Assembly (NCBI RefSeq): GCF_028368935.1
Contig: NZ_JAQNDK010000006.1
Coordinates: 975,501-1,039,500, forward strand
Direction: 5' to 3'
Origin: Sorangium aterium
GTDB lineage: Bacteria; Myxococcota_A; Polyangia; Polyangiales; Polyangiaceae
DNA length: 64,000 nt
Shown: piece by piece, positions 25,932 through 38,523 of the stretch
How the letters are laid out: each line of letters opens with the position of its first letter
Position numbering within the stretch: position 1 is the first letter of the stretch
Program-made: the position numbers and the translations under genes
The notes under the pieces: generated by a model
The model's input: the letters and a program-made list of their open reading frames with translations, nothing else
What the model was told of the DNA's origin: nothing
The model's database searches: none

Positions 25932-28900
25932 ATGACTCTCATACACGTCGACACCCAAAGTACTGCACATGGCTACGTCGCTCTCTTGCTGCGTCGCATC
26001 TGCCTCGCAATTGTCGATCAGTCTGCGAGCCACCGGACACCGAGCAGCCGGATCCCAACTCCCGGCATTAGCAAGATTCGACCAAGGCAGGCGCACTTCG
26101 GTCGGCCCCACTCAGATCGACTGGTCGCGCTCGCGTCAACTGCCGTATCGTTCGTCGTTGGCGCATGTAGTACACCCCCCCCGGAGTCATCAGGACAGGA
26201 TAGTTCTCCGCCGTCGTTCATTGAGGACGTCCACGTCACAAATGCGACACCTTGCGTCAACGAGCCTTTTACCGTTGAGGCGGCGATGGCCCACGTCGAT
26301 GGGCTCGCAGAGAGCGCGCCGTGGGTCTCGCTCAACGGCATTCCCGGCGCCAAACGCGTGTTTCAGTTCCCTTCTCCAGGCGAGTACCTCATTCGCGCCA
26401 GCGCATTTTTCAACGGCATGGCTTCCGGACAGACCGTCCGAATCGATGTGCGCGAGTGCGCGGAAGCTGCCACACACGCTCGGCTTTCAGTGGACGTGAG
26501 CCCATATTCGCCGTATCTGACAAATTTTCGTGTTCTGAACGCGGCGGACTTTCCCGGCCCGAGCCGGCGCTTTCTCTGGGACTTTGGCGACGGCACAACC
26601 GAAGAGACTAACGTGCCGTACATCGAGCATTCCTACCTGAGCTCGCTGGATGCAACGACCGAAACCCTTTCATTCGACGCCGTGCTCAAGATTAGACGTG
26701 ATGGTCATGAAGACATCGTAACCCCAAAGACAGTAACTATGTCGAACTTCTACGCCGAAACCCGTGTGCGCGGGTTTGTCCGGCCGCCGGTCGTCGCAAA
26801 CGAACGCATGGTGAGAGATGGCCGAGCGCTACGGGGTTCGTTCACGATCTCCAATCTTGAGCCCACGCCACTCACGCTTCGAACTAGACGGCTTCAGCGA
26901 CACTTCTGTGATCCTGATCTGGATCCTGTCACTATCGGAGAGGATCCCAGCGCATGGCGTATTGGCACGTTTTCCACGGGGGAGGCGCTCACTGTCGCCT
27001 CGAACGGAACGACTTCGCAGGAGTTGGTGCTCGATAATACGCAGTTCGGAAGCAACGTCTGTGCAGTGACATTGCTATTCGAGGGCTCGACCGGCAGTGG
27101 TGTCGCAGCCCGCGTAGCAGTGCACTTCGAGACCCCAGAGCCTGGGCTATTTACAGCACAGGTCAATAATCCAGGGCTTCGGAACGTCCTGAACTACGTT
27201 GCTTCTTCGGGGCTCGTCTCCGATCGCGACCACCTGAACGAGCGCGACCTGGAGCGACTGTGGCAGCAGGACTACATCGGTGAACCGCCTGGCATCGGCG
27301 ACATCGATGCCGGCGCACTGCAGGCGGGCGGCACGCTTGGCGCACGATGCGACCCGGAGCAGGCGCCCCCAGAGGCCGGGATATCATGTCAGGCCACGGA
27401 AGACTGGACGGTTACGCCGCCGCTCATTCGCAATGCACTCAAGGGCGACATCTTTATCGTGGCGGGCTGCGGTCCGATCGGTCAGCTGTTTCGCGTACTC
27501 CTTCCGCGTCAGACATATACGCACGAAGGGATCATGACTCGTAATTACTACGCGCTCAGTCACACGACAGTTGAACCCGGACGCATAATCGACTCCGTCG
27601 GGCATGGCCTTAGGAAAAACATGGATGAAAACATACTTCGCTATGGATGGCCCGGCGCTGTTCACGCCTCCGTAAACGCTGCGTTCAACGGGCGCCCGGA
27701 GATCGATCCAGACGGGAAGGTGTGGAAAGTTAGCGGATTTCGCGCTTCTGGAACCCAGTGTCAAGGCGACGCGGCTCTCAATCCTCCGATCGTTATTCGT
27801 CCGCCGCCAGGAGCGGACTCTTCGATCCGCAGCCAGCTTCATGCTGCCGCGGATTTTGCTGCGGGCGTACAGTCACATTATCGATTCTTCGCCTACACCC
27901 AGGCAAACATCGCTTTTGGACCGGATGGCAACTTCGACGGAGGGAACTATGTCGGCCCGACGGACGGCGAGATTGCTCAGGTGTCCACTAGCTTTATCTG
28001 GCACGCGCTCAAGTCGGTCGGCGTCAATCTGGAGGGGACGAATCAACTCGAAGACGCTGACGTGAGGCGCGGGGCGGCGGCCCCTCCGACGGATGGAGGT
28101 ATCGTTGATGGCCTCTATCTCTACTCTGAATCGGACCGCCGAGAAGGCGCCATGCAGATATATTCGTCGACCTACAATAGTGTCAAAGCCGCGCAGGGGG
28201 GATTTGGTGTATTTAACGTATTTACGGATCAGGCGGACGATATCGCTTCGCAGTTTACGAACTGCTTCGGGAGCGACCAATGTGGTGAAGATGGAGCCCA
28301 AAGCCGCGACTATGAAAGTCCCGGTGCCGGTGTCGCGGTGAGTCCCGACGACTTTCGGTTCTGGGATGGGCCCGACACTGGGGGGGTCTTCGGTGATGAG
28401 GAGCTCCTCATCTATCGATCGGCCGATTATCGACGAATCTATCGATGGGCCCCGTCCGGCGGTACTGGATCCGTGAGCGGAACGGTGAAGTTCGCTGACG
28501 GTACTCCGGTCCAGGGAGCGACAATCACGGTGGCGGGCAAAGACGATGGCTCGAGCGCTCTGGGTGAGTTCGACATTCGAGCAGTACCTGCAGGGATTTT
28601 CGAGGTACGTGCAGAGAAATCTGTGCTGCGCGCGGACCATTCGCAGCCATGTCCTCCGGACGGTTCCGACCTTTGCGATCACCTCATCGACGTCGAGCGA
28701 ATCACGGTTGCGGCGGACGCAGATACATCCGTGGAGTTTGTTCTCGAAGTCGAGCGCGCTATCCCTCCACCGACGCTCAAGCTGCACAGTCGACGCGTCG
28801 AGTTCTCGGGGACTGCTCACCTCGTCGATCACGAGGCGGTTCGTGCCAATGAAGTGGGAGATTTTGCGCTTCTGGGAGCATGTGAGGTGAGTCCGCTCCA

Positions 28901-29654
28901 GCGAAGTGCCACCACGGCAATCCCGGGCACCCGCATGTGCGTGGGAGGCGAGCTGGTTGTCGAAATTATTGCCCATTGCGATATTCGAGATGATAACGAG
29001 ACTGTTGACGTCACCATTGAGACTGTGATGAGGGAGGGGAGAAATTGTGGCACAAACGACGTCGCTGACCGGAAGGCAGTCGGTCCCATCGCCGCGTGCG
29101 CGGCGCCAGCGGGTTGCGGCGGCACCGTCTCGATCCATCTCTACAACGGCGAACGATTCGGCGGCGATACTGCAGACATTCAGCTCGCGTTTCGGAACGT
29201 TTCAGGCGCGCAAGAAATTACGCTCCCGAATGTGAGGCCGGAAAACATGCGTCGTGTGACGCTTTCGGGTGACATAGAGATCGAGGACGACGATGTCTTC
29301 GATCTGGAGAGCGACCGTTTCGTGCTCGGTGAGGAGTGTCTTGTCGATCCGTACCATCGTGAGGACACGGTTTCTTGGTCCCGGTGCGTTGCCGGCGAAG
29401 TGCGCCTCGAGATCGACATTGATTGTGAGCTTATGTACGACAATGTGGGTGTGAATGCCGATGTGCATGCTAGATTGTATGAAGGAGTGAGCTGTGGCTC
29501 CGATGACGAGGATGGCAATCAGAACCGCAGCTTCGTCGTGGCGCCGTGTGATGGAAGCTGCGTGCCGGTCACCTCCGACTTTAAAGTGGAAAATACTGAC
29601 GAGAGAGGTGACTGGGCGCGCGTCGTGCTCAGGATGGTGAATGAGCGGCGCTAG
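25932..29654 (+). CDS. Large multidomain lipoprotein with PKD, papain-like and regulatory-like domains
   Basis: 1240 residues from ATG 25932, which has AAGGAG at 25915-25920. The lipobox-like VVGAC lies unusually far in (about residue 80), so the true start or an upstream frameshift is uncertain. A PKD-type domain follows (FLWDFGDGTTEE). The middle contains GDIFIVAGCGPIGQLF and YTHEGIM, then STSFIWHALKSVG, which together resemble a YiiX/NlpC-like papain fold; Ser stands where the nucleophilic Cys is expected. A carboxypeptidase-regulatory-like domain (GSVSGTVKFADGTPVQGATI) comes next, then two copies of an unassigned Cys-containing repeat of about 140 residues. Codon use is less GC-biased than in neighbouring genes, suggesting transfer. 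Confidence 0.72.
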   Translation: MTLIHVDTQSTAHGYVALLLRRICLAIVDQSASHRTPSSRIPTPGISKIRPRQAHFGRPHSDRLVALASTAVSFVVGACSTPPPESSGQDSSPPSFIEDVHVTNATPCVNEPFTVEAAMAHVDGLAESAPWVSLNGIPGAKRVFQFPSPGEYLIRASAFFNGMASGQTVRIDVRECAEAATHARLSVDVSPYSPYLTNFRVLNAADFPGPSRRFLWDFGDGTTEETNVPYIEHSYLSSLDATTETLSFDAVLKIRRDGHEDIVTPKTVTMSNFYAETRVRGFVRPPVVANERMVRDGRALRGSFTISNLEPTPLTLRTRRLQRHFCDPDLDPVTIGEDPSAWRIGTFSTGEALTVASNGTTSQELVLDNTQFGSNVCAVTLLFEGSTGSGVAARVAVHFETPEPGLFTAQVNNPGLRNVLNYVASSGLVSDRDHLNERDLERLWQQDYIGEPPGIGDIDAGALQAGGTLGARCDPEQAPPEAGISCQATEDWTVTPPLIRNALKGDIFIVAGCGPIGQLFRVLLPRQTYTHEGIMTRNYYALSHTTVEPGRIIDSVGHGLRKNMDENILRYGWPGAVHASVNAAFNGRPEIDPDGKVWKVSGFRASGTQCQGDAALNPPIVIRPPPGADSSIRSQLHAAADFAAGVQSHYRFFAYTQANIAFGPDGNFDGGNYVGPTDGEIAQVSTSFIWHALKSVGVNLEGTNQLEDADVRRGAAAPPTDGGIVDGLYLYSESDRREGAMQIYSSTYNSVKAAQGGFGVFNVFTDQADDIASQFTNCFGSDQCGEDGAQSRDYESPGAGVAVSPDDFRFWDGPDTGGVFGDEELLIYRSADYRRIYRWAPSGGTGSVSGTVKFADGTPVQGATITVAGKDDGSSALGEFDIRAVPAGIFEVRAEKSVLRADHSQPCPPDGSDLCDHLIDVERITVAADADTSVEFVLEVERAIPPPTLKLHSRRVEFSGTAHLVDHEAVRANEVGDFALLGACEVSPLQRSATTAIPGTRMCVGGELVVEIIAHCDIRDDNETVDVTIETVMREGRNCGTNDVADRKAVGPIAACAAPAGCGGTVSIHLYNGERFGGDTADIQLAFRNVSGAQEITLPNVRPENMRRVTLSGDIEIEDDDVFDLESDRFVLGEECLVDPYHREDTVSWSRCVAGEVRLEIDIDCELMYDNVGVNADVHARLYEGVSCGSDDEDGNQNRSFVVAPCDGSCVPVTSDFKVENTDERGDWARVVLRMVNERR

Positions 29655-29664
29655 GTGATAGTAT

Positions 29665-30294
29665 ATGCGACGTGAATGCTACATTGCGGCAGCGGAGCGA
29701 TCTGTGTTTCGGGCGCTTTCTGCGCGTCTTTTGCACGGAGGAGCTCGTCTGGCTTGCCAAGCAAGCTTGGCAGCGACTGTGATCGTGCTCGGGTCGTGTC
29801 ACGCGGAAGAATCATCGTCTGTTGGCGGCGAGCCCGATGCCGATTTCTGCGCGTCAGATAATCACCAGACCGCGATCGAAGGTGAGTTGCTTGCCGAGGT
29901 CAACCGTTTGCGTAAAAGCGGGATGTCGTGCCCCACCTCAACATTCGAGCCAAAATTCCCGATTGAGGCGTCACCAAGTCTGGGTTGTACTGCGCGGCGT
30001 CAGGCCGAGGACATGTCGATCCGCGGCTTCTTCTCCCACCGGAACCCCGACGGGGATGGTCCGCTCGAGCGAGCAGGTCAAGCAGGTTTTCGCGGTATCG
30101 TCGGCGAGAACCTAGCGTGGGGACAGGCCACGGTAGCCGACGTCATCTCCGCATGGCTCGCGAGCCCGGAACATTGCGAAGCGATGGCATCCGACAGGTA
30201 CCGGCTCGGGGGTGCTGGGCGCGCAGTCAGCGCGAGGGGCCGGAACTACTGGACGCTTATGCTTGGAGCGGAGGGACAAGCCTCTGGCCCCTAG
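29665..30294 (+). CDS. CAP-domain (SCP/YkwD-like) lipoprotein
   Basis: 209 residues, starting 10 bp after the preceding gene, so probably co-transcribed. A hydrophobic segment ends in VLGSC, a plausible lipobox. The CAP domain is clear: LLAEVNRLRKSG, then GFFSHRNPDGDGPLERAGQAGF, GENLAWG, WLASPEHCEAMASDRYRLGGAGR and NYWTLMLG. The His in FSH and the Glu in GEN match the conserved pocket of secreted bacterial CAP proteins. These proteins are extracytoplasmic; their activity is mostly unknown. Like its neighbour it has lower GC than the surrounding genes. Confidence 0.85.
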   Translation: MRRECYIAAAERSVFRALSARLLHGGARLACQASLAATVIVLGSCHAEESSSVGGEPDADFCASDNHQTAIEGELLAEVNRLRKSGMSCPTSTFEPKFPIEASPSLGCTARRQAEDMSIRGFFSHRNPDGDGPLERAGQAGFRGIVGENLAWGQATVADVISAWLASPEHCEAMASDRYRLGGAGRAVSARGRNYWTLMLGAEGQASGP

Positions 30295-30785: not shown

Positions 30786-31081
30786 TGAGCACCGGCAGCG
30801 CCGACTGGCCACGGTCACCGGCCACCTGGATCACCTCACCCAGCGCTGTTTCCTGCCGGAGCCACGTGCGGCCCTCCCGCAGTCCCTCGTGTTTCCAGCT
30901 GGAGCCATTTCTGGACGCCCTCGCCTAAAGATTGCGCCCAGTCCCCGACGGATCCTACGGCACGCCCATTGCGATGACCCGCTGCACACGCTGCGAGCTC
31001 CCGCCGGAGCGAGCCTTCGATGGCGCTGCGAGCCCGCAACCCTTCCCAGAATGCCTGCGCACCGGGCCGGAGGAGCCGAAC

Positions 31082-31879
31082 ATGACCTCGATTCAATGCC
31101 GTATTGCGCATACACGCAAGGATCTCGACGACGCGCTTCGCGTCCGCTGGGCCGTCTTTGGCCGGGAGCTCGATCTCCTCGCGGCCGCCCCCGCTGCACC
31201 GCGTGAGGTGGACCCGTACGACACCCTGGACACCACGCTCCATTTCGTCGCCTACGCGGAGAGTCAGCCCATCGCGACCACCCGGCTGCTGCTGCCCAAT
31301 CCGGAGGTTGCGTGCGCCCGCGGCGTCCGTCTCGGGGTGGACCTCGAATCCAGGTTCGATCTCGGTGCCCTCAAGCTCCCGGGGCTCTCGCTCGCGGAGG
31401 TCACCCGCTTCTGCATCCTTTCGCAGCATCGGAGCAGCGGCGCCTTGGAGGCGCTCCATGCGGCCATGGTCGAGGAGAGCCACCGTCGCGGCATCACGCA
31501 CTGGATCGCCGCGGTGAACGCAGAGACCGACCATGCCGGGGACGCCGCGATCATGCTCCAGCTGGCCGCCGCGCTCGGGCTCGTGAGCCCCCGGGTCCGG
31601 GTCTCCCCGCTCGGCGGCGACCTCCCGCCGACCTCACCGGGCTTCCCCTTCTATGGTGAGGAGGAGCGCGCGTGGGCCCGCGCCGGCGATCTCGCCGCGT
31701 TGCAGCTTCCCCGGCCGCTCGGTGCGTTCACTCGCCGGATGGCCGCGCGTTTCATCGGTCCAGCGCGCTACGACGGCCGCTTCCGCCGGTTCGCCATGCC
31801 CCTGTTCGCCTCGGTGGAGGAGCAGGCGAGGGCGCCGCGACCCGTGAGGACCACACCCGTGACGCGCAATGCCGCGTGA
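31082..31879 (+). CDS. N-acyl amino acid synthase FeeM-like (autoinducer-synthase/GNAT fold)
   Basis: 265 residues from the ATG at 31082 with AGGAG at 31071-31075; 50 upstream in-frame codons lack similarity. The N-terminal half has the pattern shared by FeeM and LuxI-type synthases: LRVRWAVFGRELDLL, REVDPYDTLDTTLHFVAY and PIATTRLLLP, then EVTRFCILSQHRSSGALEAL. FeeM-type enzymes transfer a long acyl chain from acyl-ACP to an amino acid; LuxI relatives make homoserine lactones. Similar proteins are also found with exosortase systems, but no PEP-CTERM gene is seen here. It is followed after 37 bp by a diiron-protein gene, probably in one operon, and a LuxR regulator lies convergent. Confidence 0.7.
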   Translation: MTSIQCRIAHTRKDLDDALRVRWAVFGRELDLLAAAPAAPREVDPYDTLDTTLHFVAYAESQPIATTRLLLPNPEVACARGVRLGVDLESRFDLGALKLPGLSLAEVTRFCILSQHRSSGALEALHAAMVEESHRRGITHWIAAVNAETDHAGDAAIMLQLAAALGLVSPRVRVSPLGGDLPPTSPGFPFYGEEERAWARAGDLAALQLPRPLGAFTRRMAARFIGPARYDGRFRRFAMPLFASVEEQARAPRPVRTTPVTRNAA

Positions 31880-31916
31880 GCGAATGCGACCCATCCATTT
31901 CGAACGGAGGAACACG

Positions 31917-32717
31917 ATGGCAACCGAAACAACGGACTGGATCACCACCCTCGATCAAGAGGTCGCGGCCCTGGTCATCCGCCTGGACGCAGATCCTGCA
32001 GCCCGCCGGCTGTATGACGGCACCACGACAGCCACGGAGTACATAGCCTTCCTCGAGCAGATCTATCACTACGTGCGCTGGACCCGCCCTTTGTGTGCCT
32101 ACGCCGGCGCGCGGCTCGCGGCCACGTGCATCGGAGGCCCGGGCGAGGCGCGTGGTGCGGACGGACGAGCCGTTCTCGCGGCCCTCCTGCTCCGCAAGGC
32201 GGAGGAGGAGTCCGGGCACGAGCAATGGGCCCTCGATGATCTCGCCGCCCTCGGGCGCGACCCGGAGGTGGTGATGCGCGCCGAGCCCGCGCCGGCGACA
32301 CAGGCCTATATCGCCTGGAGCCGCTACACCGCCGAGGCGGGCGCGCCCGAGGCATTCCTGGGCACGGCGTATGTGCTGGAGGCGCTATCGGCCCACCGCG
32401 CTGGAGACGCCGCCGCGCGTCTTGTGGCACGCGCCGGGATCCTGGGCATCGAGGGCGCGGTGCGGTTCCTGCGGGGGCACGCCGACGCCGACGAGGGACA
32501 TGTGCGTGAGCTCGCGGAGCTGCTCGCGACGATCCCCGGGCCGGAGGCGCGGGAGGCCATCCTCCTGTCGGCGCGGGTCACGCGGACGGTCTATCCGGAC
32601 ATGATTGCCGGCGCGCTGGCCGGCGCGGCCTTGCTGACCGCGGCCTCACCCATCATGGCGGTGGCGAAGCGGGCGGCGCCGGGCCGACTCAGCACCGCTG
32701 CGCCGCATAAGCCATGA
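31917..32717 (+). CDS. Haem-oxygenase-like diiron protein (iron-containing redox enzyme family)
   Basis: 266 residues from the ATG at 31917 with GGAGG at 31906-31910. It is all-helical. Candidate metal ligands occur in the order expected for haem-oxygenase-like diiron oxidases: FLEQIYHYV, KAEEESGHEQW, and HADADEGHVREL. Members of this fold carry out oxidations such as desaturation, decarboxylation or N-oxygenation of amino-acid or fatty-acid substrates. Position directly after the FeeM-like gene suggests it modifies the acyl amino acid product; this is inference. Its 3' end overlaps the convergent LuxR gene by 29 bp. Confidence 0.72.
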   Translation: MATETTDWITTLDQEVAALVIRLDADPAARRLYDGTTTATEYIAFLEQIYHYVRWTRPLCAYAGARLAATCIGGPGEARGADGRAVLAALLLRKAEEESGHEQWALDDLAALGRDPEVVMRAEPAPATQAYIAWSRYTAEAGAPEAFLGTAYVLEALSAHRAGDAAARLVARAGILGIEGAVRFLRGHADADEGHVRELAELLATIPGPEAREAILLSARVTRTVYPDMIAGALAGAALLTAASPIMAVAKRAAPGRLSTAAPHKP

Positions 32718-33765
32718 GCGCTGTCCGGCTCGGCACCCCCAGCGCGTCGTAGACCCGCTGCAGGTGCTTCTTGACGGTCGCTTGCGCGCACCCGAGATCC
32801 TCGGCGATCAGCGCGTTGTCCCAGCCGCGCATCACGCGCTCCGCCACCTCGACCTGCCGGTCTGTCAGGCGTCCTCTCCACGCAGCAGGAGCCGCTGCAA
32901 CCGCTGCCTCGCGCAGCTCGACCACCCAGAACGTCCGCCCCCGATCGACGAACGGCACAAAGTCGGCGCGCAGCTCGCCGCGCGATGTGCGTCGCACCCA
33001 GGGGGCAGCCCAGGCGCCCGCAGCAGGTTCTGCCGCGGCGGCACCGAGCGCGCCAGCAAGCGGTACCGGGAGAGCACCGGCGCTCCGCTCCACAGCCGTG
33101 AACCAGCGCTCGAGCAGCGCCTCGGCCTCCGCGCTGCGCGCGAGCACGGACGCAGGCGGGGCGACCACCAGGACCTCGATGCCCTCGCGGCGAAGCGCCG
33201 CCTCCAGCGCGTCGCCGCGCCGCACCGAATCTCCAAAGCGCCGGCAGCTTCGCGTCGCGGCCGCGATAGAAGGGGCAAGGCGGTGCAGGAGGGCCCGGTC
33301 ACGGTCCGAGAACGGGCGACGTCGATCGCGGTAGAGGGTGATCCCGCCGTGCCAGCCCGGCTCGACCGCGAGCAGGACCGCCATGGCCTGCTCCAATCGC
33401 ATCCCGAGCTCCCGGCTGCGCCGGTACATCACGCTGCCCTCGATGGACCTGCGGGGTAGCATCTCGCTGTCGCGCAGCACCACGTTCGGCCGCGCGATGA
33501 CCGCGCTCCGGACGAAGTCGTGCCGCGCGAGCTCGGCGTATCCCGCGAAGAGCTCCGGAGGCAGATCGGCGACGGCCCAGTCGTACGCCGTAGGATCCCC
33601 GGGGAGCGAGACGCAGAGCGCGCCGTGATCCGCCGGCACCAACTGGCAGAGCGCGCCGTACGCCCCGCGCAGGACTTCGTGGAGATCCAAGGAGCTGTGC
33701 AGGATTTCGAGGAGTTCCCACGTGATCCGCTGCTCCCGCGCCGTCAGGTGAATGGAGGCTCGCAT
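32689..33765 (-). CDS. GAF-type sensor LuxR family transcription regulator
   Basis: 358 residues from the ATG at 33765. The frame stays open for 172 codons further upstream, but these lack recognisable structure, so I use this ATG; no strong Shine-Dalgarno is visible. The N-terminal half (about 20-200) looks like a GAF-type sensor (LEILHSSLDLHEVLRGAYGAL, then DRDRALLHRLAPSIAAA). The C-terminal 60 residues are a LuxR/GerE helix-turn-helix: RLTDRQVEVAERVMRGWDN then LIAEDLGCAQATVKKHLQRVY. It lacks an acyl-homoserine-lactone domain. It is convergent with, and probably controls or reads out, the FeeM-like/diiron operon. Confidence 0.85.
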   Translation of the reverse strand: MRASIHLTAREQRITWELLEILHSSLDLHEVLRGAYGALCQLVPADHGALCVSLPGDPTAYDWAVADLPPELFAGYAELARHDFVRSAVIARPNVVLRDSEMLPRRSIEGSVMYRRSRELGMRLEQAMAVLLAVEPGWHGGITLYRDRRRPFSDRDRALLHRLAPSIAAATRSCRRFGDSVRRGDALEAALRREGIEVLVVAPPASVLARSAEAEALLERWFTAVERSAGALPVPLAGALGAAAAEPAAGAWAAPWVRRTSRGELRADFVPFVDRGRTFWVVELREAAVAAAPAAWRGRLTDRQVEVAERVMRGWDNALIAEDLGCAQATVKKHLQRVYDALGVPSRTALMAYAAQRC

Positions 33766-34284
33766 CGGGGGTGGAGAATACCCGAAAGCGCGGCTCTCCA
33801 ACCTCGTGCGTACCACTAAAGGAGTACGCGACGCGACCGGTCCAGCGGTCTGGGAGTTGGCGATCGAGGCTCCTCTGGCCGATCCGTCTGGCGCACAGCC
33901 GTCATGTCCGGGCCGGTTCCCATGCGCGATGTCCTTTCTTTTCTGGCCCGGCCAGCCGGGGGCGAGCGGCCCTCGCATTGCGACGGTGCGCTTCTTCAAA
34001 TCACCCGTTCCGTCCACCCGGAATTCCGCTGCGGCGATCCCCGCAACGTAGCTCCTTCCGTCCCGCGTCCGGAATGGGACGTCGCGCACAGCCTGAAGCG
34101 CTGGAAGAGGGGTCATATCGCGCCGCGGCTGGCGGCTGCGCTCGACTCCTGACCGAACGGGCCGTCCTTCCAACGGTGACCCATGTCGTCGGAAGCGGTA
34201 CTCCGTCTCAGAACCTGTCCGCGGCGTCCCGAGATGGTCCCATGACCCTGCAAACGTGTACGGTGATGCCCTGGTCTTCAACCA
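33766..34284. other. Spacer upstream of the luxR-type gene
   Basis: 519 bp. An open minus-strand frame (to 34281) continues from the LuxR gene and includes RDVPFRTRDGRSYVAGIAAA, which reads like protein but matches nothing I recognise; it could be a decayed gene. The gcgtac palindrome at 33808-33829 is the only regulatory-looking element. Confidence 0.45.
33808..33829 (-). promoter_or_regulatory. Operator-like inverted repeat gcgtac-N10-gtacgc
   Basis: A perfect 6-bp inverted repeat with one helical turn between half-sites, 43 bp upstream of the LuxR start codon. Position and spacing fit an autoregulatory site of a dimeric regulator. Inference only. Confidence 0.4.
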
Positions 34285-35652
34285 TCAAATCGGCTCCGAC
34301 GACCCTTCGACGCTTTCGCGCAACCCGAACCGCTGGATCAGCGTATAGGCGAACTTCCTCCCGATCCCCGCCAGCTCCGCGGCCTGCGACACGTTGCCCC
34401 CGGTCTGCTTGAGCGCGAGTTCCATATAGGCCTTCTCGTACTCCCTTGCGACGCGGCTCCGGCCGGCGAGCAGCGGCTCGTCGAGCCGCACGTCGAGCCC
34501 ACCAGAATCACCGGAACCCGAAGGCGGCTGCGCCTCCGAGCCGGCAGGTGCCGGCGCGCCAAGCGCCAGAGCACGCGCCACCGCATTGCGTAGCTCCCTT
34601 ACGTTGCCATGCCACGACTGCTCGCCGAACAGGCTGACGACGTGCTCAGAGAGCGGCGCAGCGCCGGGGATACGGCTGGCCAGTTGCTGCTCCAGGTGCC
34701 GCACCAGGAGCGGGATGTCTTCGAGCCGCTCGCGGAGTGGGGGGAGGCGGATCGGCACCACGGCGAGGCGGTAGTAGAGATCCTCCCGGAATGCACCCAG
34801 GTCGACCGCGCGGGCCAGCGAACGGTTTGTTGCGGCGATCACCCGCACGTCCACGCGGCGCGGCTTGTTCGAACCGACGCGCCGCACCTCACCGCTCTCC
34901 AGCACTCGAAGCAGCTTGGGCTGTAAATCTGGAGGGAGCTCCCCGAGCTCGTCCAGGAAGAGCGTGCCACCGTCGGCTTCCTCGAACATCCCCACGCGGT
35001 CGTCCAGGGCGCCGGTGAACGCGCCCTTCTTGTGCCCGAAGAGTTCGCTTTCGAGCAGCGTCGACGATGCCGTCGAGCAATCGAAGACGACGAACGGCCC
35101 GTCCGCCCGCGTGCTCGCCTCGTGGACTCCGCGCGCGGCGAGCTCTTTGCCGGTGCCGCTCTCCCCTTCGATGAGCAGCGTGGTGTCCGTGGGCGCCACG
35201 CGCTCCAGAACCGCGAAGAGCCGGCGCATGGCGACGCTCCTGCCGAGCAGGCCGCCGAATCGATCCCGCGTGGATATCGGCAGCTCCACGATCGTGCTCA
35301 GCATCCGGAGCCGTAGAGCCGAGCTCCCGATCGTGATCGACGAGTCGGGCCGCGCGTAGGCGTCGCGTACCTGGACGCCATCCACGGTCGTCCCGTTGCG
35401 GCTGCCGGGATCGATGACGCGGATCCGGTCCCGCTCGATGCGCAAAACAAGGTGCTGCCGGCTGACCTTCCGGTCCTTGAGCTGAAGATCGCAACCGGCA
35501 TCGCTTCCGACCCTCGCCTCGGGACCGGGGAGCTCGATGACAGACCCGGCGTCGGGCCCGTGGACGATCTCCACGCGGATCTTGTTGGAGCGCAGCATCA
35601 GCCGGTCTGCGGGTGGCTGAGCGGTGATGGTGCCGTCATCGGAGCGGGACAT
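34285..35652 (-). CDS. FHA domain sigma54-dependent transcription activator
   Basis: 455 residues from the ATG at 35652. An N-terminal FHA domain (about 20-115: ARVGSDAGCDLQLKDRKVSRQH, then DPGSRNGTTVDG) binds phosphothreonine. The AAA+ domain (about 135-375) has Walker A GESGTGKE, the sigma54-contact loop GAFTGA, Walker B GGTLFLDELGEL and the arginine-finger region YRLAVVPIRLPPLRERLEDI. A Fis-type helix-turn-helix closes the protein (GGNVSQAAELAGIGRKFAYTLI). FHA-sigma54 activators are common in myxobacteria and are usually coupled to Ser/Thr kinases. The gene lies downstream of pnkp on the same strand but 303 bp away, so it likely has its own promoter. Confidence 0.93.
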   Translation of the reverse strand: MSRSDDGTITAQPPADRLMLRSNKIRVEIVHGPDAGSVIELPGPEARVGSDAGCDLQLKDRKVSRQHLVLRIERDRIRVIDPGSRNGTTVDGVQVRDAYARPDSSITIGSSALRLRMLSTIVELPISTRDRFGGLLGRSVAMRRLFAVLERVAPTDTTLLIEGESGTGKELAARGVHEASTRADGPFVVFDCSTASSTLLESELFGHKKGAFTGALDDRVGMFEEADGGTLFLDELGELPPDLQPKLLRVLESGEVRRVGSNKPRRVDVRVIAATNRSLARAVDLGAFREDLYYRLAVVPIRLPPLRERLEDIPLLVRHLEQQLASRIPGAAPLSEHVVSLFGEQSWHGNVRELRNAVARALALGAPAPAGSEAQPPSGSGDSGGLDVRLDEPLLAGRSRVAREYEKAYMELALKQTGGNVSQAAELAGIGRKFAYTLIQRFGLRESVEGSSEPI

Positions 35653-35825
35653 GGAAGGAGCGAGCCGATCCGCCGGTTGTTCGCCGGCGGACCTGGACGG
35701 AGCGATGCCATGCTGGCCGGGGCGGGGGCGCAGGTACAAGCGTGCCAGCCAGCATGCCGAGGGGACAATATTTCGGGGGTAGGGCGGTCCAGAGGTGGTT
35801 CTTACCCTACACGTCAAGGAGGATT

Positions 35826-35955: not shown

Positions 35956-38523
35956 TCACAGCCGCGGATCGATCGGCTCGCTCTCCAGCGCCAGCACCCC
36001 GAACACACACTCGTGCACGCGGTGGAGCGGCTCGCCCTCCACGAAGCGGTGGAGCGCCTCCAGGCCGAGCGCGTACTCCCGCAGCGCGAGCGCGCGCTTC
36101 CCTGACACGCTGCGGCTCCGCAGCCGCGCGAGGTGCTGCGGCATCAGGTACTCCGGCCCGTAGATGATGCGCAGGTACTCCGGCCCGCGGCACTTGATCG
36201 CCGGCTGGACGAGCCCGCGCGGGCCGCGGACCACCCACTCCCACGACTTCACCACCATGCCCTCGCCGCCGCGCTCGACCATCTCCGTCCAGAAGGCCAC
36301 CGCCTGCGCCTCGCTCTGCGGGTCCGAGAGGTCGACCACGCGGTGCGGGGTCTCCACGAAGAACGCCGGATCGACCTCGGCGAGCCGCGCGAGCTGCCGC
36401 AGGTGGAAGCCGTGGTCCCGCGCCGCGTGCACCGCGCCCTCGCTCGCGAGCAGGTGGAACGGCGCCAGGCGGAGGTCCGCCAGCGACCGCACCGGCCAGC
36501 AGTAGCGCCGGTAGGCCGCCACGTACCCGTCCATCGCCGCCTTCCGGGCCGCGTGGCGCTCGAGCAGCACCCGCGCGCTCTCGTCGCGCGCGGCGGCCTT
36601 CTCCAGCGCGCGCACCGTCGCGTCGAGCGACGCGCGGCCCGACGAGCCGACGGCGGCGTACTGGCCGCGCAGGAGATCCTGGGCCTTCGCCGACCAGGGC
36701 AGGAGCTCCGCGTCGAGGCAGACCCAGTCCGTGCGCAGCTCGGCCCACAGATCCGCCCGATCCATCGCCGCCCGCACCCGGTCGATGAGCTCCCGGCTCC
36801 GCGCCTCGTCCGAGAAGAACGGCCTGCCCGTGCGCGTCGTGCACACGCCGAGCGGCCCCTCGTCGAGGCGGAACCGCCGCCGCCGCGCGGTCTCGTCGCG
36901 GCACACGACGAGCACCGCGCGCGACCCCATGTGCTTCTCCTCGCAGACCACGCGGCCCACGCCGTTCTGCCGGAAGTACGCGAACGCCTCGCGCGGGTGC
37001 TCGAGCAGGCCCCCGTCCTTCGACGTCTCGCTCGGCGACATCGTCGGCGGCAGGTAGATGAGCCACCGAGGATCCACGGCGAAGCGGCTCATCGCCTCGA
37101 GCGCCGCCGCCGCGTTCTCCTCGCGGATCGTCACCATGCCGTGCACCCGCGTCCGGATCGCGCGCCGGCCGCGCACGTCGTCGATGTCGAGCACGTCGTA
37201 GGCCTGCCCGCGCGATCCGGCCTTCGGCTCGCCCGCGAGCGGCGCGAGCGGCTTCGCGGGCTCGTAGTACACGCGGCGCGCCTTGACCTCGACGAGCTCG
37301 CGCTCCGGGTAGCGGAGCGCCGTGAGCGCGCCGCCGAACACGCACCCCGTGTCGATGCAGATCGTGCGGTTCTCCCACTCGGCCACCGTCGTCGGCGTGT
37401 GGCCGTAGACCACCATCGCCTTGCCGCGGTACTCCGAGGCCCAGTTGTACCGCACGGGCAGGCCGTACTCGTCGGTCTCGCCCGTGGTCTCGCCGTACAG
37501 GCAGAACTCGCGCACCGCGCCCGAGCCACGGCCCTGGAACGCCTCCTTCACCCCCGCGTGCGCGACCGCGAGGTTGCCGTCGTCGAGCACGTAGTGGCTG
37601 ACGAGCCCGTCGATGAAGTCCGCCGCCTTCGCCTTGAACGCGTCCGTCTCCGCCTCGAGCTGCTCGAGCGTCCGCTCGAGCCCGTGCGTCGGCTTCACGT
37701 CGCGCCCGCGCAGCTTCTTCAGCAGCTTCACGTCGTGGTTGCCGGGCACGCAGAGCGCGGCGCCCGACTCGACCATCGCCATCGCGAGGCGCAGCACGTC
37801 GGGCGAGCGCGGCCCGCGGTCCACGAGGTCGCCGAGGAAGATCGCGCGCCGGCCCTCGGGGTGCGACGCGCGCGGCGCGTCCGGCAGCCCCTCCAGCTTG
37901 TAGCCGAGCGCCTCGAGCAGCTCGACCAGCTCGTCGAAGCAGCCGTGGACGTCGCCGATGATGTCGAACGGCCCGCGCTCGTCGCGGCGGTCGGTCCACA
38001 GGCGCTGCCGCTCGATCGTGGCCGCCGCCACCTCCTCGGGCGAGGAGAGCACGTGCACGTAGCGGAAGCCCTCGCGCCGGAGCTCCTTGAGCGAGCGGCG
38101 CAGCTCGCGGCTCTGGCCCCGCACGACGTGGGGGCCGAACTGCCGGTCCGGCCGGCCGGCGTTGCGCGCGTGGCAGAGCTTCTCCGGCATGTCGAGCACG
38201 ATGGCCACCGGCAGCACGTGGTGCTCGCGCGCGAGCGCGACGAGCGGCCTGCGCGCGTCCGCCTGCACGTTGGTCGCGTCGACAACGGCGAGCCGCCCCG
38301 ACGCGAGCCGCTTGCCCGCGATGAAGTGCAGCACCTCGAAGGCGGCCGCGCTGGCGGCCTGGTCGTTCTCGTCGTCGGACACGACGCCGCGGTAGTGGTC
38401 CGACGAGAGGATCTCGGTCGGCTTGAAGTGCGCCCTCGCGAACGTGCTCTTGCCGGAGCCGGACGCGCCGACGAGCACGACCAGCGAGAGGGAAGGGACG
38501 ATGAGGGGGGCCTGCTCGCTCAC
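35956..38523 (-). CDS. pnkp: Bacterial polynucleotide kinase-phosphatase-ligase (Pnkp)
   Basis: 855 residues from the GTG at 38523, which overlaps the hen1 stop by 3 bases (gtga), implying coupled translation. Three catalytic modules are visible in order. The 5' kinase has P-loop GASGSGKST (19-27). The metallophosphatase has GDVHGCFDELV, FLGDLVDRGPRSPD and CVPGNHD. The C-terminal nucleotidyltransferase has motif I EKHMGSR with the Lys that is adenylylated. Pnkp heals and, together with Hen1, seals cleaved RNA such as ribotoxin-cut tRNA. Some similar enzymes need Hen1 for full ligase activity. The start is GTG, not a long upstream extension of the same frame through hen1. Confidence 0.93.
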   Translation of the reverse strand: MSEQAPLIVPSLSLVVLVGASGSGKSTFARAHFKPTEILSSDHYRGVVSDDENDQAASAAAFEVLHFIAGKRLASGRLAVVDATNVQADARRPLVALAREHHVLPVAIVLDMPEKLCHARNAGRPDRQFGPHVVRGQSRELRRSLKELRREGFRYVHVLSSPEEVAAATIERQRLWTDRRDERGPFDIIGDVHGCFDELVELLEALGYKLEGLPDAPRASHPEGRRAIFLGDLVDRGPRSPDVLRLAMAMVESGAALCVPGNHDVKLLKKLRGRDVKPTHGLERTLEQLEAETDAFKAKAADFIDGLVSHYVLDDGNLAVAHAGVKEAFQGRGSGAVREFCLYGETTGETDEYGLPVRYNWASEYRGKAMVVYGHTPTTVAEWENRTICIDTGCVFGGALTALRYPERELVEVKARRVYYEPAKPLAPLAGEPKAGSRGQAYDVLDIDDVRGRRAIRTRVHGMVTIREENAAAALEAMSRFAVDPRWLIYLPPTMSPSETSKDGGLLEHPREAFAYFRQNGVGRVVCEEKHMGSRAVLVVCRDETARRRRFRLDEGPLGVCTTRTGRPFFSDEARSRELIDRVRAAMDRADLWAELRTDWVCLDAELLPWSAKAQDLLRGQYAAVGSSGRASLDATVRALEKAAARDESARVLLERHAARKAAMDGYVAAYRRYCWPVRSLADLRLAPFHLLASEGAVHAARDHGFHLRQLARLAEVDPAFFVETPHRVVDLSDPQSEAQAVAFWTEMVERGGEGMVVKSWEWVVRGPRGLVQPAIKCRGPEYLRIIYGPEYLMPQHLARLRSRSVSGKRALALREYALGLEALHRFVEGEPLHRVHECVFGVLALESEPIDPRL

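What the first reader, a model, noticed from the sequence alone, without database searches (positions are those of the whole stretch)
31082..33829. FeeM/LuxI-fold synthase, diiron enzyme and LuxR regulator: candidate signalling system
A single-gene acyl amino acid synthase with an autoinducer-synthase fold, a haem-oxygenase-like diiron enzyme right after it, and a convergent GAF-LuxR regulator (3' ends overlapping by 29 bp) with an operator-like palindrome before it. Together they resemble a quorum-sensing circuit that would make an oxidised N-acyl amino acid. Neither the classical AHL domain nor a PEP-CTERM/exosortase context is present.
Basis: partly seen in the sequence, partly recalled or inferred. 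Interest (0 to 1): 0.7.

Follow-up and report, generated by a model that had tools for sequence, protein, structure and literature searches.

The report
Myxobacterial acyl-amino-acid signal module, candidate
Three neighbouring genes, one that should join a fatty acid to an amino acid, one that should oxidise the product and one that switches genes on, stay together across distantly related predatory soil bacteria, so they probably make and sense an unknown small molecule, possibly a chemical message.

Summary
A FeeM-type synthase (31082-31879), a haem-oxygenase-like diiron oxidase (HDO, 31917-32717) and a convergent LuxR-type regulator (32689-33765, 29-bp overlap) form a module that travels together in myxobacteria. 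All 25 distinct FeeM loci compared carry the HDO within 127 bp; 23 of 25 carry the regulator, in three layouts. Reverse searches with the HDO and the regulator return nearly the same loci. The window's own genome has a second, diverged copy. Folds and catalytic residues fit an N-acyl amino acid synthase and a 3H/3C HDO. New here: in 12 of 14 loci of the window's order the operon is preceded by a sigma-54-like promoter, and a sigma-54 activator ORF adjoins 10 of 25 loci. This argues against a simple LuxR-autoinduced circuit. The palindrome before luxR is real but is not found before the synthase. Best reading: the two enzymes make an oxidised N-acyl amino acid that the LuxR protein senses. Chemistry is well supported by homology; signalling is inferred. 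Nine searches of an open-access library turned up no description of this set.

The parts
30958..30973 (+). sigma-54-like -24/-12 promoter element CGGCACGCCCATTGCG before the feeM-HDO operon
   Evidence: Score 13.2 of 15.2 (weights chosen by me); Markov-shuffle P 0.007; 3 sites this good, itself included, in both strands of the 64-kb window; falls in a 14-base run plus TTGC kept in So ce26, where the whole upstream stretch is 87% identical. Consensus recalled, not from a call.
31082..31879 (+). FeeM-like N-acyl amino acid synthase (GNAT/LuxI fold), 265 aa
   Evidence: Pfam PF21926 40.8 bits; AlphaFold2 pLDDT 88.5, best PDB match FeeM 2g0b; R22, R68, E106 in 25 of 25 and D47, R109 in 24 of 25 sequences
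31917..32717 (+). haem-oxygenase-like diiron oxidase (HDO), 266 aa
   Evidence: Pfam PF14518 64.5 bits; pLDDT 90.5, best PDB 3dde, CADD, UndA; E98 H101 H188 D192 H195 in 25 of 25, E155 in 24 of 25
32689..32717 (.). 29-bp overlap of the 3' ends of the HDO and luxR genes
   Evidence: Same 29-bp overlap in the window and six loci of another genus (L009, L043-L047)
32689..33765 (-). LuxR-type regulator with weakly GAF-like N-terminal domain, 358 aa
   Evidence: GerE 46.4 bits; GAF_2 23.2 bits, below cut-off; GerE in 14 of 14 members scanned; present in 23 of 25 loci
33808..33829 (.). inverted repeat GCGTAC-N10-GTACGC before luxR, possible operator
   Evidence: function not shown
34285..35745 (-). 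FHA-domain sigma-54 activator (bEBP) directly upstream of luxR; possible fourth member in the Sorangium group (start codon uncertain)
   Evidence: Pfam Sigma54_activat 226 bits, FHA 50.1 bits; activator ORF beside 10 of 25 loci, none of them Myxococcaceae

Best explanation
A self-contained small-molecule module. Step 1 (inferred from family and fold): the FeeM-like enzyme moves a fatty acyl group from acyl-ACP or acyl-CoA to the amino group of an amino acid or related amine. Step 2 (inferred from family and ligands): the HDO uses a diiron centre and O2 to oxidise, desaturate or decarboxylate the amino-acid part or the acyl chain. Step 3 (inferred from linkage): the LuxR-type protein senses the product through its N-terminal domain and changes transcription, so the product acts as a signal. 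In the Sorangium group the enzymes are probably switched on by a sigma-54 promoter and a neighbouring FHA-type activator, which would tie signal production to Ser/Thr-kinase signalling, with LuxR acting as the receiver and not as the direct activator of the synthase.
For: 25 of 25 FeeM loci have the HDO within 127 bp and 23 of 25 have the LuxR gene, in three layouts (loci). Reverse search of 183 genomes with the HDO: 15 places at E<1e-70, 14 beside FeeM, the 15th (G005) 46 bp from a contig end. Reverse search with LuxR: 14 places at E<=1e-30, 13 in the set. Distances correlate, r 0.83-0.96 (22 loci) and 0.93-0.98 without two outliers. dN/dS against So ce26 0.25, 0.39, 0.23. FeeM is the best fold match; HDO 3H/3C set (set described in PMC13108848, passages). 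Sigma-54-like element in 12 of 14 loci of the order at shuffle P<=0.06 and in 0 of 23 luxR upstream regions. In 4-10 kb of flank no gene family other than the sigma-54 activator recurs in three lineage groups.
Against: No substrate, product or ligand is known. The LuxR sensor domain has no confident family. No DNA motif shared by luxR and synthase promoters was found. LuxR is missing beside the set in Pyxidicoccus (8 kb each side) and in the Byssovorax MAG, where no LuxR relative was found in the whole assembly at E<=1e-30; it occurs without the enzymes in G159 and is shortened by about 100 aa in the window genome's own second copy. G005 has an HDO at a contig end but neither FeeM nor LuxR was found in its assembly of 1270 contigs. 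The sigma-54 element is absent from 11 of 11 Myxococcaceae loci and 2 of 14 in the order, so it is not part of the core. Distance correlation does not exclude shared species history. The divergent G163b HDO has lost E155. The module is patchy: 6 of 377 genomes drawn from the phylum.
Confidence: 0.5

Rival explanations
1. A minimal secondary-metabolite or membrane-lipid operon with a pathway-specific LuxR regulator. The product is a defence compound, surfactant or lipid, and LuxR senses an upstream cue, not the product.
For: N-acyl amino acid plus oxidase operons that make oxazolone lipids are known (oxz, tyz, trz; PMC12856293, first of seven parts read); that part does not describe them as LuxR circuits. 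LuxR sensor domain unassigned. Sigma-54-like control of the enzymes, not shared with luxR. LuxR not found beside 2 of 25 sets.
Against: No further enzyme, transporter or resistance family recurs in three lineage groups beside the set (two unidentified or kinase families recur in two groups each). The regulator is kept with the two enzymes in three layouts.
Confidence: 0.33
2. A true AHL system in disguise: the synthase uses S-adenosylmethionine and makes acyl-homoserine lactones.
For: LuxI-type R22, D44, D47, R68, E106 and R109 align with BjaI; LasI and BjaI are among the fold matches; 4 of 17 family members match PF00765 weakly, best E 5.5e-4.
Against: Window protein does not match PF00765 at E<=1 and reaches 15.2 bits against a cut-off of 250 for the NCBIfam TraI-type AHL synthase. 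D44 is kept in only 17 of 25. Regulator has no PF03472 match. Best fold match is FeeM.
Confidence: 0.08
3. Chance neighbours: the regulator is a general LuxR protein unrelated to the two enzymes.
For: Convergent orientation in 19 of 25 loci, so no shared transcript there; solo LuxR in G159.
Against: 23 of 25 loci keep it in three different layouts; 13 of 14 order-wide LuxR places lie in the set.
Confidence: 0.05

Closest known systems
FeeM N-acyl amino acid synthase (PDB 2g0b)
   Same: PF21926 above cut-off; best fold match of the model, TM normalised by target 0.71-0.76 and by query 0.51-0.53
   Different: Only 10-11% identity in the structural alignment; paired with an HDO and LuxR gene, and no acyl carrier protein was recognised among the neighbours scanned
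LuxI/LuxR AHL quorum sensing, including myxobacterial AgpI and VitI (PMC7862692)
   Same: LuxI-like catalytic residues and fold; a LuxR-type HTH regulator next door
   Different: Neither window protein matches the defining AHL domains; an HDO is added; AgpI and VitI are solo, and complete LuxR/LuxI systems are stated not to be documented in myxobacteria (PMC13293253, passages)
Oxazolone operons oxz, tyz and trz (N-acyltransferase plus ThiF-like cyclase and flavin-dependent oxidase; PMC12856293, first part read)
   Same: Same logic: N-acylation of an amino acid, then O2-dependent oxidation by a neighbouring enzyme
   Different: Flavin oxidase and ThiF cyclase there, HDO and no cyclase here
Haem-oxygenase-like dimetal oxidases (UndA, CADD, SznF; review PMC13108848, passages)
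   Same: Fold and 3H/3C ligands
   Different: Closest structure is 3dde, a protein of unknown function; the substrate class is not known

Membership tests
FeeM N-acyl amino acid synthases | Match to PF21926 above the curated cut-off | tested here: met
   40.8 bits against 27; 17 of 17 members of alignment A3 match at E<=0.1
FeeM N-acyl amino acid synthases | FeeM fold | tested here: met
   Best Foldseek match 2g0b, E 3.2e-8
FeeM N-acyl amino acid synthases | Acyl transfer to an amino acid | not testable with these tools
   Needs enzyme assay
LuxI AHL synthases | PF00765 match | tested here: not met
   No match at E<=1 for the window protein; 4 of 17 members match weakly, best 5.5e-4
LuxR AHL receptors | PF03472 Autoind_bind domain | tested here: not met
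   Not matched by the window protein at E<=1, and not among the 13 families matched at E<=0.1 by the 14 members
LuxR/GerE-type regulators | GerE HTH | tested here: met
   46.4 bits against 23.5; 14 of 14 members
GAF-domain sensors | GAF match above cut-off | tested here: inconclusive
   23.2 bits against 28.6; 5 of 14 members match GAF_2 at E<=0.1
HDO superfamily | HO-like fold with three His and three carboxylate ligands | tested here: met
   Fold; E98 H101 E155 H188 D192 H195, complete in 24 of 25; metal binding itself not tested
PEP-CTERM/exosortase-associated acyltransferases | TIGR03694 above cut-off | tested here: not met
   34.4 bits against 111.95
PEP-CTERM/exosortase-associated acyltransferases | Exosortase gene in the genome | not tested
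   No search was made
OlsB ornithine acyltransferases | NCBIfam OlsB models above cut-off | tested here: not met
   31.7 against 350 and 26.9 against 320 bits
Quorum-sensing systems | Secreted product that changes gene expression with cell density | not testable with these tools
   Needs cultures, LC-MS and reporters

The most novel reading that the evidence does not exclude
A previously undescribed family of myxobacterial signalling circuits, present twice in at least two genomes, in which a FeeM-type synthase and a diiron oxidase make a non-AHL oxidised N-acyl amino acid sensed by a LuxR protein with a new ligand domain, with signal production gated by sigma-54 and an FHA activator in the Sorangium lineage.
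Probability: 0.4. Interest if true: 0.82.

Novelty: new variant of a known kind. Interest (0 to 1): 0.63.

Why it matters
[quoted passage not shown] A compact three-gene set that is kept together in Sorangium, Corallococcus and relatives is directly testable: two enzymes to express, one regulator to assay. It could also add a new substrate class to the HDO enzymes, of which about a dozen have been functionally validated (PMC13108848, passages).

Tried and rejected
AHL synthase membership: rejected on domains, although the LuxI residues are largely kept.

LuxR operator shared by both promoters: looked for dyads upstream of 23 luxR genes and 25 operons. There are more exact 6-base dyads than in Markov samples before luxR (57 against a mean of 35, maximum 50), driven in part by the long inverted repeat of ten related Corallococcus-type loci, but not clearly before the operon (39 against 27, maximum 43); I saw no motif common to both.

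Fourth core gene: the FHA activator was tested. Its best match in G019 (64%) is not the gene beside the set (57%). The one beside the window genome's second set is a remote subfamily without FHA, 74th of 76 matches. No Myxococcaceae locus has an ORF in the activator group. So it is an adjunct, not core.

Viral contigs: no relative of the FeeM protein. Plasmids: weak FeeM hits in 2 records, and HDO hits at <60% identity in 23 records, several of the 20 listed annotated AMP-binding. The genome-contig scan gave 15 loci, all myxobacterial by title, but it relies on short peptide patterns and can miss relatives. The profile searches of whole genomes scored only the best 6-16 first-look candidates of each genome, so weaker relatives can be missed there too.

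Rows dropped: L012, L023, L024 and L026 duplicate L008, L011, L010 and L049. L051 and L052, the two weakest FeeM hits in the order (E about 1e-11), have no HDO or LuxR hit at E<=0.01 and were left out of the 25, so in the order the linkage is 14 of 16 places. The window genome's second set and the two sets without LuxR were left out of the distance correlation. The lone HDO of G005 and the solo LuxR of G159 are not among the 25. The structure alignments used 17 (synthase, HDO) and 14 (LuxR) of the available sequences.
Full report
What is there. The window comes from a 13.5-Mb genome of the same genus-level group as Sorangium cellulosum So ce26 and So0157-2. The three genes are as described: FeeM-like 31082-31879 (+), HDO-like 31917-32717 (+) and LuxR-type 32689-33765 (-), the last two overlapping by 29 bp at their 3' ends. 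Both enzyme genes have good ribosome-binding sequences, GGAGGAG before 31082 and CGGAGGA before 31917 (read), and 37 bp lie between them, so they look like one operon.

Is it more than chance? Yes. I collected 25 distinct loci with a FeeM relative: 14 in the window's order (Polyangiales; order name recalled) and 11 from titled Myxococcaceae records (nine Corallococcus, one Pyxidicoccus, one Myxococcaceae MAG). All 25 have the HDO within 127 bp. Twenty-three have the LuxR gene: 22 of them within 0.8 kb and So ce26 2.2 kb away. The layouts differ: FeeM-HDO with convergent LuxR in 19, HDO-FeeM-LuxR in one direction in 3, LuxR-HDO-FeeM in 1, and no LuxR seen in 2 (Pyxidicoccus within 8 kb each side; a Byssovorax MAG whose set lies at a contig end and whose assembly gave no LuxR relative at E<=1e-30). 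The exact 29-bp overlap recurs in six loci of another genus at 43-54% protein identity of HDO and LuxR. Two further weak FeeM hits in the order (E about 1e-11) have no HDO and no LuxR.

Reverse searches of the 183 genomes of the order give the same picture. The HDO profile has 15 places with E below 1e-70, 14 of them beside FeeM and one (G005) 46 bp from a contig end; no FeeM or LuxR was found in the G005 assembly of 1270 contigs. The next HDO hits fall to E 1e-37 and weaker. The LuxR profile has 14 places at E<=1e-30, 13 of them in the set. The exception, G159, is a solo regulator on an 8.3-kb contig. These searches scored only the best 11-16 first-look candidates of each genome. In an even draw of 377 genomes of the phylum 6 had the synthase at E<=1e-15, so the module is patchy. 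Pairwise distances of the three proteins correlate (FeeM-HDO 0.96, FeeM-LuxR 0.90, HDO-LuxR 0.83; Mantel 0 of 2000 each, 22 loci; 0.95, 0.98, 0.93 without the two most divergent loci). Shared species history may explain part of this. The genes are under purifying selection against So ce26 (dN/dS 0.25, 0.39, 0.23).

Second copy. The window genome carries a second set on contig C1 (3032068-3034458) at 45-46% identity, in the other layout, with a LuxR protein that lacks about 100 residues between the N-terminal domain and the HTH. G163 also has two sets. Two diverged sets in one cell would suit two signals with different specificity; this is inference.

Synthase. All 17 members scanned match FeeM (PF21926) and Acetyltransf_5 at E<=0.1. 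The AlphaFold2 model (pLDDT 88.5) is closest to FeeM 2g0b, then to GNATs, LasI and BjaI. The residues that align with the LuxI core in BjaI are mostly kept: R22, R68 and E106 in 25 of 25, D47 and R109 in 24 of 25, but D44 in only 17 of 25. It is not a member of the AHL synthase, exosortase-associated or OlsB families by their models.

Oxidase. The model (pLDDT 90.5) is closest to 3dde (unknown function), CADD and UndA. E98, H101, H188, D192 and H195 are invariant in 25 sequences and E155 in 24. They align with UndA residues of the same kind, and apart from E98 with CADD ones, and make the 3H/3C set of the HDO superfamily described in PMC13108848 (passages). Which UndA and CADD residues are the ligands is recalled.

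Regulator. GerE HTH in all 14 scanned. The N-terminal half matches GAF weakly and below cut-off. It is not a PF03472 AHL receptor. A ligand pocket is not shown. In the whole genome PF03472 gave two matches, both below cut-off.

Promoters. Upstream of feeM, at 30958-30973, there is a sigma-54-like element, CGGCACGCCCATTGCG. Three sites as good, itself included, occur in both strands of the window. It falls in a 14-base run plus TTGC kept in So ce26, but that whole upstream stretch is 87% identical, so this pair says little. More telling, GGCACG-N4-CTGCAATC is strictly kept in six loci of genus g15 (mean identity 83%), and a weaker form is conserved in the second-copy type (mean identity 75%). 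Against Markov samples, 12 of 14 operons of the order reach P<=0.06 (Byssovorax 0.16 and PMG095 0.80 do not; in G163b the site is 181 bases upstream), 0 of 11 Myxococcaceae operons do (lowest 0.16; two of these had only about 150 bases of sequence), and 0 of 23 luxR upstream regions do (lowest 0.31). These P values are not corrected for relatedness and the weights are my own. A sigma-54 activator ORF adjoins 10 of 25 loci; in So ce26 its 90% ortholog is 5.2 kb away in the same order. The genome has 76 such matches, so adjacency alone is weak, and the activator beside the second-copy type is a different subfamily without FHA. I read this as sigma-54 control of signal production in the Sorangium group, not in Corallococcus.

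Neighbours. Across 4-10 kb of flank at the 25 loci, only ORFs of the activator group recur in three lineage groups. The window's PNKP region is shared with genus g15 alone, and two more families recur in two groups each, one of them holding a protein kinase. So no further pathway gene travels with the set.

What it does. The synthase chemistry is the best-supported step (about 0.75), HDO oxidation of the product or a precursor is likely (about 0.6), and product sensing by LuxR is plausible from linkage (about 0.5). All three are inferred; none is shown.

Literature. Nine searches of the library listed no paper that I recognised from its title and abstract start as describing this set; only the top 2-20 titles of each were shown. 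Read: the first of five parts of PMC7862692 and the first of seven parts of PMC12856293; passages of PMC13293253, PMC7694542, PMC13108848, PMC13232832 and PMC6616573; PMC12479983 was searched for six terms with no hit. [quoted passage not shown] some of those calls may be this gene, which I could not check. Most subscription papers are not held.

Noticed in passing
G000 contig C1 3032068-3034458 (L007:8769-11159): Second, diverged copy of the three-gene set in the window's own genome, with the order HDO-FeeM-LuxR and a LuxR protein shortened by about 100 aa.
   Followed up: partly
window 34285-35745: FHA-domain sigma-54 activator next to luxR; the genome holds 76 matches to it at E<=1e-20, itself included.
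   Followed up: partly
window 35956-38409: PNKP-type kinase-phosphatase-ligase (RNA repair) gene; relatives of this stretch also lie near the set in genus g15.
   Followed up: no
L008:6565-8547: In So ce26 a 660-aa ORF lies between the HDO and luxR genes, which are overlapping convergent neighbours in the window.
   Followed up: no
L020:9666-10292: In Corallococcus sp. CA053C a 208-aa lipoprotein-like ORF lies between the HDO and luxR genes; gaps of about 560-790 bp in five further Myxococcaceae loci may hold the same.
   Followed up: no
L014-L022 and L025, upstream of luxR: Inverted repeat GGACGGG...CCCGTCC about 80-140 bp before luxR in the ten Corallococcus-type loci.
   Followed up: no
L010:11088-11338, L048:8184-8434: Perfect dyad TGCTGCA-N3-TGCAGCA 80 bp upstream of the sigma-54-like element, a candidate activator site; g15 loci carry two GGATCCACC repeats upstream of theirs.
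   Followed up: no
L112:1911-2999: Solo LuxR relative (47% identity) without the enzymes on its 8.3-kb contig.
   Followed up: partly
window 25932-29654: 1240-aa protein with PKD and carboxypeptidase-regulatory-like domains, followed by a CAP-domain protein at 29665-30291.
   Followed up: no
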